Source of the DNA: Actinomycetota bacterium
GTDB lineage: Bacteria; Armatimonadota; SYMT01
DNA: 32,705 nt
Direction: 5' to 3'
NCBI GenBank assembly: GCA_005805375.1
Contig: SYMT01000451.1
Location: forward strand, 1-32,705
The translations under genes and the position numbers were made by a program. The stretch's first letter is position 1. Each line of letters begins with the position of its first letter. Below, piece after piece: positions 26,416-32,617 of this stretch. Below the pieces are notes generated by a model. That model ran no database searches, was not told where the DNA came from, and was given only the letters and a program-made list of their open reading frames with translations.

Positions 26416-28689
26416 TCAGCGTTCCAGGGAGGCGATCTCAGCGTCGGTGAGTTTCTCCTTACCCGTTTCTCCCACCGCGACTACGGTGGTCTTCCCGGTG
26501 CGGAACGTGACCGCCCGTCCCAGTGCCAGGTAGCGCGCCCACTCGGTGCGGGAAAGCAGGCGGAAGTAGGCGTCGGAGCCATACTTCACCGCGACCGTGG
26601 TGGGCTTTGCAGGGGCAGTGGTGTCGTGCCATGCAAGGCCATCTCGACGGAACCCGCGTCCCTGCACCGTGCGCAGCACATCCGGGTCGCTGTCGGTCAC
26701 CTGGCGCTCCCGCAATGCCCGCAGACTGCGACTCACGTCCACCGCGTCCTGACCGACGTTTTGTTTCAGCGCGTCGGAACGCGCCAGCACGCGTTTCTCC
26801 GGGCTTGTCTCCGCTGCAACAGGCGCCCTGGGGTTGGAGCCGCCGAACCCTCCTCCGCCCCGTCCCAATCCGCCGGCGCCGGCCGGTTCCAGGCCGGGGC
26901 GCCGCACGCCAGGGAACGGCGCCGGGATCGGGCGCAGCCCGGGTTCTTCGACGAGATAGGCGGTGTAGGGGGTGACGATGCCGAACTCCTTGCTCAGGCG
27001 GATGACCTCGTCCTTCAATTCGGCCTTCTCGCCGCGGAGGCGGATCTCCTCAAGCAGGAACCCGATCTTGCGTCCCGCCCAGAGCTTCGGCACGAACTCC
27101 TGGCCCGGCTCCCGGGAAGGAAGGTCCACCTCGTAGGTATGTCGCTGCCGTTGGCCGTTGAGATCTCCGGAGAGGATGACTCGGGCCTTACCGGTCCCCT
27201 GATACCGGCCGAACACGAGCGACTGCGTGCCCGCGAACAGGTCCGGGATCCGCGAGGGGTAGATGTCCTGGAGCGTGCCCCCCTCGACCTCCACCCGCAC
27301 GTTGGACAGCACCGGCGTGGCGATCTTCGCGTAGAAGTCTCCGACCTTGACCTCCAGGTTCTCCGAATCGTCCACATAGTCGGCGTCGCCGTGATGGTCG
27401 CGGGCCAGGCGGTCGAGCAGGAGCGTATTCACGTCCGAGCCGACGCCGAAGGTGAAGAGGCGTACGTCGGCCGGGGCCGCCTTCGCCGCGTTGCCCAGAA
27501 TCCGTTCCGGGTCCGTCATGCCGATGGTCGGGAGCCCGTCGGTCAGGAACACCAGGTAGGCGCCCCGTCCGCGCCGTTGTTCCGGGGCAGGGAGGGAGGC
27601 GAGGCCGGCCTGGAGCGCGTCATCAATGGCGGTCCCTCCGATCGCCCGGAGTTCCTCGGCGAACTTTGCCGCCGCCGCCCGATTCTCGGGGGTAGCGGGC
27701 ACAACGCCGGATCTGAACTCGCCCACGTCGCTGCTGAACCGAATTATGTTGAACCGGTCCTCCCGGTGCAGCGCTCCGAGCACTGTTTGCAGCGCCTTGC
27801 GCGCCTGCTCCATCTTCGCGCCCTGCATGCTGCCCGAGGTGTCGAAGACGAAGACCACGTCCTTCGGCTGCCTGTCCTTCGCCCCGACCTGCCGCTTGGG
27901 GGCCAGCATCAGCAGGACGTAGCCGTCTTCCCCCGTGCGGCGGTGGGCCAGCGTGTTCAGCCCGAACTCTTTTTCCGAGGTGCTGCAATAGAGCACGAAG
28001 TCCCGGTCGGCGCGTACGGCCCGGCCCTCAAACGTTGCCCGGGCCAGGTGGTCGCTCTCCCGCCGCACCTGCACCTCGTGGGATGGACTGTAGACTGTCT
28101 TGATGGGCTGACTGCTCCGGACGGTGCAATCTACGACCAGATCCGCCGGCGGTTGCCCCACGGCCTGCTCGGATTTCAGTGGGTAGACAGCACGATAGAC
28201 CCCATTGCGGAACTCCGCTATCTGGCTGTAGACGAGGGAGATCCGCCGTTCCTGACCCGGCAAGATTGGGAAAATGCGGGCGCGGAAGGCGTTGCGGCCC
28301 ACGTACTCGAGGATCGCCGGGTCCACGTTCTGGCGCACGTACGACTCGTAGATGCGCCGTGCTTCTTCTACACTGAGCAACTTGCCCTCCACCGGCTCCT
28401 GGCCGATCGTCAGACGGAAGTTGGACACAGCGGAGTTGTCCGGCAGCGGGAACAGATAGGTTCCTTCTACCTGAAACGCGTTGGGATTGTAGAACGTCTG
28501 CTCTACTTCGACGCGCAGTGCCCCCTGATTCAGGTGTAGATTTACCTTCTGCGATTTGAGGTGAATCGGCTGCACTGGTCGGATGAGATGTACCGGCGGC
28601 ACGGGTCGCGGAAAGACGAGGCCCTGTGCCTGCACCCCTGGGGCTGCCGTCAGGCACAAGCCGATGCTGATGAGCCACTTCGCTCGCAT
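26416..28689 (-). CDS. VIT-VWA protein, second gene of a tandem pair
   Basis: 757 residues from the ATG at 28687-28689, with GGGAG seven bases upstream; the open frame back to 29034 is not needed. A signal peptide (1-22, ending VQAQ) is followed by a vault/inter-alpha-trypsin (VIT) domain at about 45-165 and a VWA domain at about 275-445. The VWA MIDAS is complete: DTSGS (283-287), a Thr in GGTAIDDAL, and TDGLPT. The C-terminal part is a helical region (EIRLRGEKAELKDEVIRLS), a Gly-rich linker with GAGGLGRGGGGFGG, and a basic end with FRTGKTTVVAVGETGKEK. This is a secreted, metal-binding adhesion or assembly protein. It starts 14 bases after the upstream paralogue's stop, so both are in one transcript ended by the hairpin at 26354-26394. 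Confidence 0.9.
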   Translation of the reverse strand: MRAKWLISIGLCLTAAPGVQAQGLVFPRPVPPVHLIRPVQPIHLKSQKVNLHLNQGALRVEVEQTFYNPNAFQVEGTYLFPLPDNSAVSNFRLTIGQEPVEGKLLSVEEARRIYESYVRQNVDPAILEYVGRNAFRARIFPILPGQERRISLVYSQIAEFRNGVYRAVYPLKSEQAVGQPPADLVVDCTVRSSQPIKTVYSPSHEVQVRRESDHLARATFEGRAVRADRDFVLYCSTSEKEFGLNTLAHRRTGEDGYVLLMLAPKRQVGAKDRQPKDVVFVFDTSGSMQGAKMEQARKALQTVLGALHREDRFNIIRFSSDVGEFRSGVVPATPENRAAAAKFAEELRAIGGTAIDDALQAGLASLPAPEQRRGRGAYLVFLTDGLPTIGMTDPERILGNAAKAAPADVRLFTFGVGSDVNTLLLDRLARDHHGDADYVDDSENLEVKVGDFYAKIATPVLSNVRVEVEGGTLQDIYPSRIPDLFAGTQSLVFGRYQGTGKARVILSGDLNGQRQRHTYEVDLPSREPGQEFVPKLWAGRKIGFLLEEIRLRGEKAELKDEVIRLSKEFGIVTPYTAYLVEEPGLRPIPAPFPGVRRPGLEPAGAGGLGRGGGGFGGSNPRAPVAAETSPEKRVLARSDALKQNVGQDAVDVSRSLRALRERQVTDSDPDVLRTVQGRGFRRDGLAWHDTTAPAKPTTVAVKYGSDAYFRLLSRTEWARYLALGRAVTFRTGKTTVVAVGETGKEKLTDAEIASLER

Positions 28690-28703: not shown

Positions 28704-31025
28704 TCAATAGCCGCCGTGTGCGCGGCGCTGAAGCCGGCGGCCGATCAGGCCGCCAATGAGAACCGTCCCGGCCGCGGCGCCGCCGAGCAACGCACCCCCG
28801 GCCGGGATCCGGGGTGCGGAAAGCGCGGCTGCCATCCCGAACAAGCGCGCCCGATCTGCTGCACTGAACTGGCTGGTCCCGTCGTCGTCTACCTGGATGG
28901 GTTCCTTGCCGAGGAGAAAACGCACCCGCCGGCCCGCCGCCATCGTTGCCGTCAGGTCCGGCCTCCGCTTCAGGATTTCCCAGTACGCGGGTGAATAGCG
29001 CTTGACCTTGAGCGGCTTGCGATCTGCGGGCCACTCCGGGTCGGTCCAGAAACCACCCCGCAGGAACTGCGCCCGTGCACCCGCCTGCCGCGCCTGGTTC
29101 CCCTCCACCTCGCGGCCATCTTCGCCCAGAAAACGATTCTGGTAAACCTGCGCCTGCTGCCGAAGTCCCCGGTTGTTGACCGACTGGCTTGTGGCAAACG
29201 CCCCCTGGGAGAATGTGTTCGCGCGCTGTGCATTCTCTCCGACGGCGGCCGCCTGACTGCTCAGATCCAGCGCCACCCGGTCATCCGCCAGACTGCGGGT
29301 GTAATCAGTCAGGATCCCGAACTCGCGACTGAGGGCGGAAATCTGCCGAATCAGCTCCGGCTTCGGTCCGGTGAGCCGCACCTCGTCCAGCAGTTCGCCG
29401 ATCTTGCGCTGTGCCCAGAGGCGCGGGAGAAAATCAAACGCTGCGCCGCGGTCCGGCAGGGCGGTGCGGACTTCGTACGTCTTCACCTCCGTTCCTGAAC
29501 TGCCGGTCAGGCGGGCGACCAGAGGCCCGGGCTTGCGGTAGCGGCCGACGACCACAATCTCGCCCCCCGCGAAGAGGTCCGGCAACTCCCCCGGAAGAAT
29601 GTCCGCGGTATCGCCGCCCTCGAGTGAGAGTTTCAGGTCGGTCAGCACCGGTTGGGACTGTTTCTCGTAGAATGAGGCCAGCCTCGCCTCCAGGTTGTCG
29701 CCGGGCCGAACGTACTCAGCATCGCCCCGGTTTTCTACCGACAGCTGGTCCAGGAACGGCACGTTCACATCGTAGCCCACGCCGAACACGAACACGCGCG
29801 CGCGGCGCGAGTTCGCTTCCATCACGGCAGTGCGAATCTTGCCGATGTCCGTGACGCCGGCGGTGGGGAGACCATCCGTCAGAAAGACGACTGCCGCCGG
29901 TCGGTCTCCACGGCCGAGGACCTGGAGCCCGCTCTTCAGTGCGTCGTGGATGTTGGTGCCGCCGTTCGCGATGATGCTCCGAAGCGCCCGCTGAGCCTCT
30001 GCGACGTTCTCTGCCGTGGCGGGCTGGAGTTCCGGCCGCCATACGTTCACGGTGCTGTCGTACCACACCAGAGAAAAGCGATCCGCCGGGTTCAACCGCG
30101 ACAGCGAGAAATCGAGCCCGGCTTTCGCCTGCGCGAGCTTGTCACCTGCCATGCTGCCGGAGCGATCCAGCACGAAGATCACGTCCCGGGCCACGTACTC
30201 GGACCGAGCCAGCGCGGGCCCGGGCCGGACCGACGCCAGGAATACTCCCCCGAAGCCCGTCTGCCGCATCGCGAGCACCCGGAAGTCCACCGGAGCATTG
30301 CCGGCGGCCGAATAGAGGTGCAAGTCGTTGTCGATGCGCCGGTTGCTCTCGGCGTAGGCGCCTTCCACGGATCCGTCTGCGCTCCGTGTCCAGGTGAACG
30401 GGTGCGTCGGCGAGTAGTAAAACCCGATCGGTTCTCGATCACTGAGGGAGACCCGCACCGTCACGTGGTTGATCGGAAGATTGGAGAAGCCGTTCGTGCT
30501 CAGTGGGTGGTGGAATCGCACGACTCCCTGATCCACCGGCAAGTCCGCGTGGTACTCCATCCGCATGGTGAGGCGCCCGCCGGCCGGGATGCTCATTGCA
30601 GGCCCGCGGAAGAACGGTTGTCCCAGGTAGCGCAGCACGCGTGGGTCGTCGTTCTGTTGGGCAGACTCGCGGTAGACCCGATCCGCCTGTTCTCCCTGCA
30701 CTCGTTCTGCGGAACTCGAAGCGCCGTTGATCGTGTAGTGAAAGTCCCGCACGTCCAATCCGGGGGGCGCCGGCCAGAGGTTTGCCACTTCGGCAGACGC
30801 TGCGCCCTGGTTCGTGACGGTCTGGTCAATGCGTACATGAGCCTGCCGCCCCTGGATCCGCACCGCCACCGCCAGGTCAGCGATAGAGAGCGGCTGTACG
30901 GGAGCAGAGGCTGCGAGGGACACACCCGGCCGCACCGGCCGCACGAAGAGTCCTCACGTATGGCCCGCGCGCGCGCCTCCCAGCAATAGTAGACCGGCCA
31001 GCCCCGCCGCCCATCGAGTGCCCAT
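28704..31025 (-). pseudogene. VIT-VWA protein with an in-frame TGA after the signal peptide
   Basis: The true start seems to be the ATG at 31023-31025, with GGGGAGG (about 31032-31038) six bases upstream. It codes a signal peptide, MGTRWAAGLAGLLLLGGARA, then GHT and a TGA (30954-30956). In the same frame GLFVRPVRP and a full VIT-VWA protein continue. The open part from a GTG at 30942-30944 is 746 residues: VIT at about 20-140, VWA with DRSGS (260-264) and TDGLPT, a helical part, and a C-terminal membrane helix (GGALLGGAAAGTVLIGGLIG) ending in basic residues. The paralogue downstream has GLVFPRPVPP at the matching place, so the break falls within homologous sequence. It is a nonsense allele, a sequencing error, or two reading units: GAGGA sits six bases before the GTG, so re-initiation would give a protein without a signal peptide. 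Called pseudogene with this uncertainty. Confidence 0.6.
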
Positions 31026-31042
31026 CGGTTGCCTCCCCGTCG

Positions 31043-31172: not shown

Positions 31173-31979
31173 CTACCAACCGTCTCCGGCAAACCCGGCC
31201 CGCACCGCGGCCCGCATTGCCGCAGCATACGGAGCCGAATCCTGCTGTGCGCGCGCCAGTTGGTGCCGAGCTGTTTCGGCCGCCTGTGCGAGGCGCGGGA
31301 TGTCCACCCGAGTCATGTCCATCTGAGTGGTGTCCATCTGAGTGATCTCGTGCAGAGTGCGGAACAATTCCAGAAGTTCACGGCGTTCCCGGTTGAGTTC
31401 TTCTCGGTCCAGACCAAACACCGCAATCGTGGTGCGTCCGACATCGTTATCCTCGACGGCGTACGGGATCTCCTTTCGGAAGGAGATGTGCGCCGCAGGA
31501 TCCGTCATGCCTGGGTCAAGGAGTAACGGCGCTTCGGCCGCAATGTCGTCATGATGGCTGCGAGCTCGCCGCGTCGGGTCACGCAGCGGAAACATGTTCT
31601 CCTTGAAGCGCTGGTTGCAGAGTGTGCAGGAGGCATAAAGATTCGCCCAGTCATACGCAAGCCAGTAATACCCGGGGTACTGGAGCACGTCACCCGCCTG
31701 TTGGCGGAAGGCGCCCTTGGGGCGAAAGTGTTCCACGTCTCCGTAGGCGATGTGGGTGAACCGGGACTCGCAGAACGCGCATTTTTCGTGCTGCGCTCGT
31801 ATCAGACCTTCTTTCACGGAGGCGTGCCCGTAGATCCCGGATTGGTGCCTGAATCGCAGCTCACCGGTGAGATATTCAGCCGATGCTCCATCGTAGGTGA
31901 TCTCATCCTGCGCCCGCTGATCTCGCCCGCGGGTGCAAAGCACTGATGGGGGTTCTCCCGGCTTCCGTATCCGATTCAC
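31173..31979 (-). CDS. HNH endonuclease, PtuB/TIGR02646-like
   Basis: 268 residues from a GTG at 31977-31979, overlapping the ATPase stop by four bases (GTGA). The N-terminus MNRIRKPGEPP and the HNH core fit the PtuB-like family: zinc pair C67/C70 in CAFCESR, DVEHFRPKG with H84 as the catalytic His, YYWLAYDWANLYASCTLCNQ with C118/C121, N122, and KENMFPL. Such nucleases pair with an AAA ATPase in Septu systems and retron Ec78-type defence. The C-terminal part contains the repeated unit ITQMD/TTQMD/MTRVD (212-226), coded by a 15-base tandem repeat, and a helical end. The nuclease looks intact, but its partner ATPase is truncated, so the pair may be inactive or work differently. Confidence 0.85.
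   Translation of the reverse strand: MNRIRKPGEPPSVLCTRGRDQRAQDEITYDGASAEYLTGELRFRHQSGIYGHASVKEGLIRAQHEKCAFCESRFTHIAYGDVEHFRPKGAFRQQAGDVLQYPGYYWLAYDWANLYASCTLCNQRFKENMFPLRDPTRRARSHHDDIAAEAPLLLDPGMTDPAAHISFRKEIPYAVEDNDVGRTTIAVFGLDREELNRERRELLELFRTLHEITQMDTTQMDMTRVDIPRLAQAAETARHQLARAQQDSAPYAAAMRAAVRAGFAGDGW
31300..31344. repeat. Three 15-base tandem repeats inside the HNH gene
   Basis: Units 31300-31314, 31315-31329 and 31330-31344 read ATGTCCACCCGAGTC, ATGTCCATCTGAGTG and GTGTCCATCTGAGTG. Units 2 and 3 differ only at their first base. On the minus strand they code five-residue units ending in a TQMD-like pattern. The frame is kept. Confidence 0.85.
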
Positions 31980-32617
31980 AGGTTCACCCCTTTCAACGCT
32001 TCAGCCGCGCGGCGGATGACCTCCATGGCCTCGCGGTCCTCCGGTCGCTCGCCGATCGGCAGGGCGCCGATCTGTTCGTCCAGGCGGCGTAGATCCGCCC
32101 GGTCGGTCTCGGTCAGCGCCGCCTTGCCCAGGATCTTGCGGCGCTGTTCCAGGGCCTCCTCCACACGCTGGGAGCGCGGAGACGGCAGTCGGAAGAGATC
32201 GCTGGTGAGGATCTGGTCTACGCGGTAGCCGCGCACCGACGGAGCGTCGTTGATGATCTGCACCGCACCGGTTTCGTCCCGGGCCAGCAGCACGATGCGG
32301 GCGTCCTCGGCGGCTTGCACGATGAGCGGACTGTGGGCCGTGACGACAAACTGGGTATTGACGAACCACTTTTGCAGGAAGGAGATCAGGTTCCGCTGCC
32401 ACGCCGGGTGGAGATGAAGATCCATTTCATCCACCAGCACGAGCGCCGGCTCGTCCAGCGGACGGGCGCTTTCCGGATACCACTCCACCAGCCGGCGGGC
32501 AAGATCCACCATCCAGGCGATGACGGTGCGGTACCCGAGGCTCAAGCCCCACACCGAGATGGGTATAATTCTGTGGTACGGTAGGGAAAGCGTGGACGCC
32601 GAGGCACGGGGTGCGAT
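31976..32617 (-). pseudogene. C-terminal half of an AAA/ABC-type ATPase (PtuA-like)
   Basis: The open frame from a GTG at 32552-32554 gives 192 residues, and it is open up to a TGA at 32618-32620. The extra part reads LPYHRIIPISV directly before WGLSLGYRTVIAWMVDLARR, as in PtuA/OLD-like ATPases. Present are the signature-like LSLGYRT (4-10), Walker B LVLVDEMDLHLHP (38-50), and the H-loop VVTAHSP (71-77). Walker A (GxxGxGKS/T) is absent in all minus frames between the TGA and the window edge. Such ATPases normally have 450-600 residues, so the N-terminal half is lost. The stop overlaps the HNH start by four bases. It is a fragment of a two-gene defence-like unit, unless the missing part lies elsewhere. 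Confidence 0.7.
32564..32569 (+). promoter_or_regulatory. TATAAT -10 element inside the ATPase fragment
   Basis: A perfect plus-strand TATAAT lies 107 bases before the ATG of the next plus-strand gene. No TTGACA-like -35 is seen at 15-18 bases spacing (CTCAAG lies at 32541-32546), so this is a weak call. It may drive the gene at 32676. Confidence 0.3.

What the first reader, a model, noticed from the sequence alone, without database searches (positions are those of the whole stretch)
30927..31025. An in-frame TGA separates signal peptide and mature part of a VIT-VWA protein
Seen: ATG at 31023-31025 with a strong GGGGAGG site, a complete signal peptide, then GHT-TGA, then GLFVRPVRP in the same frame. 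The paralogue 28689-26416 has GLVFPRPVPP right after its signal peptide, so similarity continues across the stop. A second GAGGA site six bases before GTG 30944 could restart translation, giving a non-exported form. A perfect hairpin CGGCCG-GTG-CGGCCG (30927-30941) lies 12 bases after the TGA. Possible explanations: a nonsense mutation, a base error, programmed readthrough, or a switch between secreted and internal forms. Selenocysteine is unlikely at a mature N-terminus, but the hairpin is worth a look.
Basis: partly seen in the sequence, partly recalled or inferred. Interest (0 to 1): 0.7.

Follow-up and report, generated by a model that had tools for sequence, protein, structure and literature searches.

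The report
Exported VIT-VWA protein containing selenocysteine
The 'stop codon' inside this exported adhesion-type bacterial protein is almost certainly read as selenocysteine, which makes it a selenoprotein of a kind missing from the current catalogue and suggests that selenium supply controls whether this surface protein is made.

Summary
A TGA at 30956-30954 (-) separates a signal peptide from the mature part of a VIT-VWA protein. It is not an error, a pseudogene or a plain stop.

The only other held genome of the family (another genus, 50% protein identity) has the same GHT-TGA-GLF, with three synonymous and no amino-acid changes around the TGA, inside an otherwise poorly conserved N-terminus.

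Both genes carry a hairpin after the TGA. Its sequence differs, but the GUG loop sits 18 nt downstream in both, fitting the published bacterial SECIS model. The hairpins score as well as those of 29 TGA-containing redox genes from the same order; under 1% of background TGAs do.

Both genomes encode SelA, SelB, tRNA-Sec(UCA) and a SelD with its own TGA, plus many other likely selenoproteins.

Best reading: the TGA encodes selenocysteine a few residues into the mature, membrane-anchored protein. A 2026 catalogue of 119 prokaryotic selenoprotein families has no VIT or VWA member.

The selenol's role is unknown: the window protein has no Cys, and most relatives have Asp or Gln there. Nothing is shown experimentally, and only two incomplete genomes carry it.

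The parts
28704..31025 (-). whole selenoprotein gene: ATG start, Sec-TGA at codon 24, stop TGA at 28706-28704 (773 residues)
   Evidence: orthologue with same layout in G001
31032..31038 (-). Shine-Dalgarno GGGGAGG for the ATG at 31025
   Evidence: sequence
30966..31025 (-). signal peptide MGTRWAAGLAGLLLLGGARA (cleavage after ARA inferred by the -3,-1 rule, not tested)
   Evidence: hydrophobic N-terminus kept in G001
30945..30965 (-). motif GHT-U-GLF, identical in G001
30954..30956 (-). TGA read as selenocysteine (codon 24)
   Evidence: conserved in G001; Sec machinery in genome
30923..30945 (-). bSECIS hairpin: GUG loop at 30935-30933, 6-bp inner stem, mismatch, 3-bp weak outer stem; inner part 30927-30941
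   Evidence: bSECIS model in PMC13188914
30552..30878 (-). VIT domain (PF08487)
29727..30185 (-). VWA domain (PF00092) with DxSxS motif
28725..28796 (-). C-terminal hydrophobic helix followed by an Arg-rich tail; probable membrane anchor
30942..30953 (-). GAGGA overlapping the TGA and GTG 30944: possible restart site, function not shown
   Evidence: sequence; GAGGG...TTG at the same place in G001

Best explanation
The gene encodes a selenoprotein. The in-frame UGA (codon 24) is decoded as selenocysteine by SelB with Sec-tRNA(UCA), directed by a bSECIS hairpin whose GUG loop lies 18 nt downstream. The full-length product has a signal peptide, a Sec about four residues into the mature chain (GHTU-GLF), VIT and VWA domains and a C-terminal membrane anchor, so it should be exported and face outward. 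Without selenium or SelB the ribosome would stop after 23 residues, so the exported protein would depend on selenium. Shown by sequence: the conserved TGA and flanks, the hairpin, Sec machinery in the same genome, many other likely Sec genes in the lineage. Inferred: actual Sec insertion, the cleavage site, the topology and the role of the selenol. For that role I favour a lone exposed selenol that bonds a partner chain or binds a soft metal, because the window protein has no Cys for an internal selenosulfide.
For: Same GHT-TGA-GLF in another genus at 50% protein identity, with only synonymous changes around the TGA, and nowhere else in 291 genomes of the phylum. GUG-loop hairpin at identical spacing with different stem sequence, fitting the published bSECIS model, scoring 20 and 21 against a median of 18 for 29 TGA-containing redox genes of the order, reached by 0.8% and 0.5% of background TGAs. 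SelB, tRNA-Sec with anticodon TCA, SelA and SelD with its own in-frame TGA in both genomes. Gly25 next to the TGA is invariant in 40 homologues, so the protein continues across it. Two homologues have Cys at the Sec position.
Against: Only two genomes carry it, both incomplete (80% and 69%). Most homologues have Asp or Gln, not Cys, at the site, and there is no known redox motif. The hairpins' MFE is ordinary against synonymous shuffles (16% and 44% as low or lower), and the loose bSECIS model is met by 42% of background TGAs. No peptide or reporter evidence.
Confidence: 0.93

Rival explanations
1. Stop and restart: translation ends at the TGA and restarts at GTG 30944 from the GAGGA overlapping the TGA, giving a form without signal peptide, alone or as a switch.
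For: GAGGA/GTG in the window and GAGGG/TTG at the same place in G001.
Against: GGN follows the TGA because Gly25 is invariant in the family, and a hydrophobic residue is expected at the GTG/TTG codon, so both may be coincidental. It leaves the conserved GHT and GLF codons, the kept signal peptide and the hairpin unexplained. A C-terminal anchor with an Arg-rich end fits an exported, not an internal, protein.
Confidence: 0.04
2. Readthrough of the TGA by a near-cognate tRNA without selenium.
For: The TGA is conserved and similarity continues across it.
Against: The genome decodes Sec and the bSECIS hairpin is present; nothing suggests another reader of TGA.
Confidence: 0.02
3. Sequencing error, or a nonsense mutation in a decaying gene.
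For: A single in-frame stop in an otherwise intact gene, in an incomplete assembly.
Against: Same TGA in a second genus with only synonymous changes at its sides; the rest of the gene is intact over 750 codons.
Confidence: 0.005
4. TGA is reassigned throughout this genome (alternative genetic code).
For: Many genes have one in-frame TGA.
Against: TGA ends this gene, its paralogue and neighbours; the other in-frame TGAs sit at redox positions and are followed by bSECIS-like hairpins.
Confidence: 0.003

Closest known systems
Bacterial selenoproteins with a bSECIS element (model and 119-family catalogue in PMC13188914)
   Same: In-frame UGA, bSECIS hairpin directly downstream with G in the first loop position, spacing 18 nt, Sec machinery in the genome
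   Different: Not a thioredoxin-like or metalloenzyme fold; Sec lies at the signal-peptide boundary of an exported adhesion-type protein; no Cys partner in the window protein; VIT/VWA is not in the catalogue
Bacterial VIT-VWA proteins near TIGR03788 (marine proteobacterial sortase target)
   Same: Same domain order, signal peptide and C-terminal hydrophobic segment; significant similarity
   Different: 191 bits against a cut-off of 551.65; separate long-branch clade; Sec where relatives have Asp, Gln or rarely Cys
Human inter-alpha-inhibitor heavy chain 1 (PDB 6FPY)
   Same: Best solved fold match, Foldseek E 9.6e-37
   Different: 22% identity over the match; animal plasma protein; matched at fold level only

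Membership tests
Bacterial selenoprotein (bSECIS type) | In-frame TGA conserved across species with coding similarity on both sides | tested here: met
   G001 orthologue
Bacterial selenoprotein (bSECIS type) | Hairpin with 3-9 nt loop, G in first two loop positions, 4-16 bp stem, 16-37 nt after the TGA, MFE <= -7.5 | tested here: met
   Both genes
Bacterial selenoprotein (bSECIS type) | SelA, SelB, tRNA-Sec and SelD in the genome | tested here: met
   SelA and SelB are split over contigs in G000
Bacterial selenoprotein (bSECIS type) | Homologues with Cys at the Sec position | tested here: inconclusive
   2 of 38 homologues have Cys; 27 Asp, 8 Gln, 1 Gly
Bacterial selenoprotein (bSECIS type) | Selenium shown in the protein | not testable with these tools
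   Needs a reporter assay or mass spectrometry
VIT-VWA protein | VIT (PF08487) and VWA (PF00092) domains over cut-off | tested here: met
   fold match to 6FPY
TIGR03788 marine sortase target | Score over the curated cut-off | tested here: not met
   191.2 bits against 551.65

The most novel reading that the evidence does not exclude
A selenium-gated surface protein: Sec near the free N-terminus (GHTU) of an anchored adhesion-type VIT-VWA protein acts as a soft-metal or selenium-status ligand together with the N-terminal amine and His22, or as a covalent link to a partner; when selenium is short, termination plus restart at GTG 30944 yields an internal form instead.
Probability: 0.15. Interest if true: 0.85.

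Novelty: new variant of a known kind. Interest (0 to 1): 0.66.

Why it matters
It would add a selenoprotein family outside the thioredoxin-like and metalloenzyme groups: an exported, membrane-anchored adhesion-type fold with Sec at its N-terminal edge and, in the window protein, no Cys partner. An annotation that reads TGA only as a stop would start this gene at GTG 30944 and lose both the signal peptide and the Sec residue. Because most relatives have Asp or Gln there, searches that rely on Sec/Cys pairs would tend to miss it. Production of an exported surface protein would depend on selenium supply.

Tried and rejected
Error and pseudogene were rejected by the G001 comparison. Genome-wide TGA reassignment was rejected because TGA serves as a normal stop. 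The genome-contig scan gave only distant homologues. Rfam had nothing relevant at the site. Gene neighbourhood is not shared with G001 and gave no functional hint. A Sec-containing molybdopterin enzyme was sought: no in-frame TGA found. The loose bSECIS model alone was set aside as evidence because 42% of background TGAs meet it; MFE alone was also uninformative. I first read the lack of SelA, SelB and tRNA-Sec in G002 as a correlation with the lack of a stop in its homologue; that was dropped, because G002 has a SelD fragment and several redox genes with in-frame TGA and its homologue belongs to the paralogous clade.

Full report
Observation. On the minus strand the window has ATG 31025, a signal peptide ending in GHT, TGA 30956-30954, then GLFVRPVRP and an open frame to 28704. 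The protein has a VIT and a VWA domain and a C-terminal hydrophobic helix with an Arg-rich end.

The stop is conserved. The only other held genome of the same family (G001, another genus) has an orthologue 50% identical over the full length, with TGA at the same codon. Around the TGA the codons are GGC CAT ACG TGA GGA CTC TTC against GGC CAC ACC TGA GGG CTC TTC. That is seven identical positions with only synonymous changes, while most residues in 2-20 and 28-45 differ. A pattern search of 291 genomes of the phylum finds GHT-TGA-GLF only in these two, and the reversed control pattern in none. A profile search of the same genomes found homologues in 90, with TGA inside the match only in these two.

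The hairpin is conserved in form, not in sequence. In both genes a GUG loop begins after 18 nt of spacing from the TGA. The stem is CGGCCG/CGGCCG in the window; in G001 it is GUCC/GGAC, then one mismatch, then further pairs. [quoted passage not shown] both meet it. The loose model alone is weak evidence, since 42% of all TGA triplets in the window meet it. A stricter score was compared with 29 TGA-containing redox genes from this order. The two VWA hairpins score 20 and 21 (9 bp each with one mismatch); the 29 genes have a median of 18 (range 3-24); 0.8% and 0.5% of 758 background TGAs reach the two scores. In synonymous-codon shuffles, both genes show a stem of at least 4 bp around a GUG loop in 8.7e-4 of cases. 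Overall MFE is not exceptional.

The organism decodes Sec. G000 has tRNA-Sec with anticodon TCA, SelB over the family cut-off, SelA in two pieces on contigs C535 and C589, and SelD with an in-frame TGA in CGG-U-ASKAS. G001 has SelB, and tRNA-Sec, SelD (with TGA) and SelA together on contig C20. G002, of the same order, has a SelD fragment with TGA and several TGA-containing redox genes, but SelA, SelB and tRNA-Sec were not found there over cut-off. It is 88% complete and the SelD contig ends inside the gene, so this is probably an assembly gap. G000 and G001 carry many AhpC/TSA-like and CMD proteins with one TGA each, at positions such as WUGPC and YUGPC. No Sec-containing molybdopterin enzyme was seen.

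The protein continues across the TGA. Gly25, just after it, is invariant in 40 homologues and is followed by a conserved hydrophobic strand. At the Sec position the 38 other homologues have Asp (27), Gln (8), Cys (2) or Gly (1). In most of them this looks like the first residue after an AxA signal-peptidase site, so Sec lies at or near the mature N-terminus. In the window protein the likely cut after ARA (inference) leaves GHTUGLF. The window protein has no Cys at all, so an internal selenosulfide is not possible. TGA is a normal stop elsewhere, including at the end of this gene.

Relatedness. The two Sec proteins form their own clade with 100/100 support on a long branch; the window's Gln paralogue groups with the G002 homologue. 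An AlphaFold2 model with Cys at position 24 has mean pLDDT 89.5, but the block holding the Sec site is only about 68. The best solved fold is human inter-alpha-inhibitor heavy chain 1.

Novelty. A 2026 review lists 119 prokaryotic selenoprotein families or subfamilies. None is a VIT or VWA protein, and its main text contains neither 'von Willebrand', 'VWA' nor 'vault'. Searches of open-access papers found no report of one. Absence from these sources does not prove that nobody has seen it.

Mechanism and confidence. Sec insertion by the standard bacterial route: 0.93. Selenium-dependent production of the exported form follows from that but is inferred. What the selenol does is open: binding a soft metal with His22 and the N-terminus, bonding to a partner chain, or a redox role with an external partner. 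Restart at GTG 30944 could make a minor internal form. The organism's name is not given by the tools and was not determined.

Noticed in passing
L153-L182 (G000, G001, G002): Selenoprotein-rich order: 29 distinct AhpC/TSA-like and CMD genes with one in-frame TGA each were found in three incomplete genomes, most followed by a clear bSECIS-like hairpin. Only a few families were searched, so the real number is probably higher.
   Followed up: partly
window 31173-32554 (-): Two genes upstream resemble parts of a Septu-type defence pair: a PtuA-like ATPase C-terminal part and a PtuB-like HNH protein, both far below the curated cut-offs.
   Followed up: no
window 26416-28689 (-): A second VIT-VWA gene starts 14 bp after the selenoprotein gene, with Gln at the Sec position; in G001 the two kinds lie on different contigs.
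   Followed up: partly
L058 4960-5058, L059 5312-5410: tRNA-Sec lies just downstream of selD in G000 and beside selD and selA in G001; ARAGORN also calls a tmRNA overlapping the G001 tRNA-Sec, which may be spurious.
   Followed up: no
L128, L137 (G261, G256): Two more distant homologues have Cys next to the same site (QACIVIP, HACIIVPP), without the Gly.
   Followed up: no
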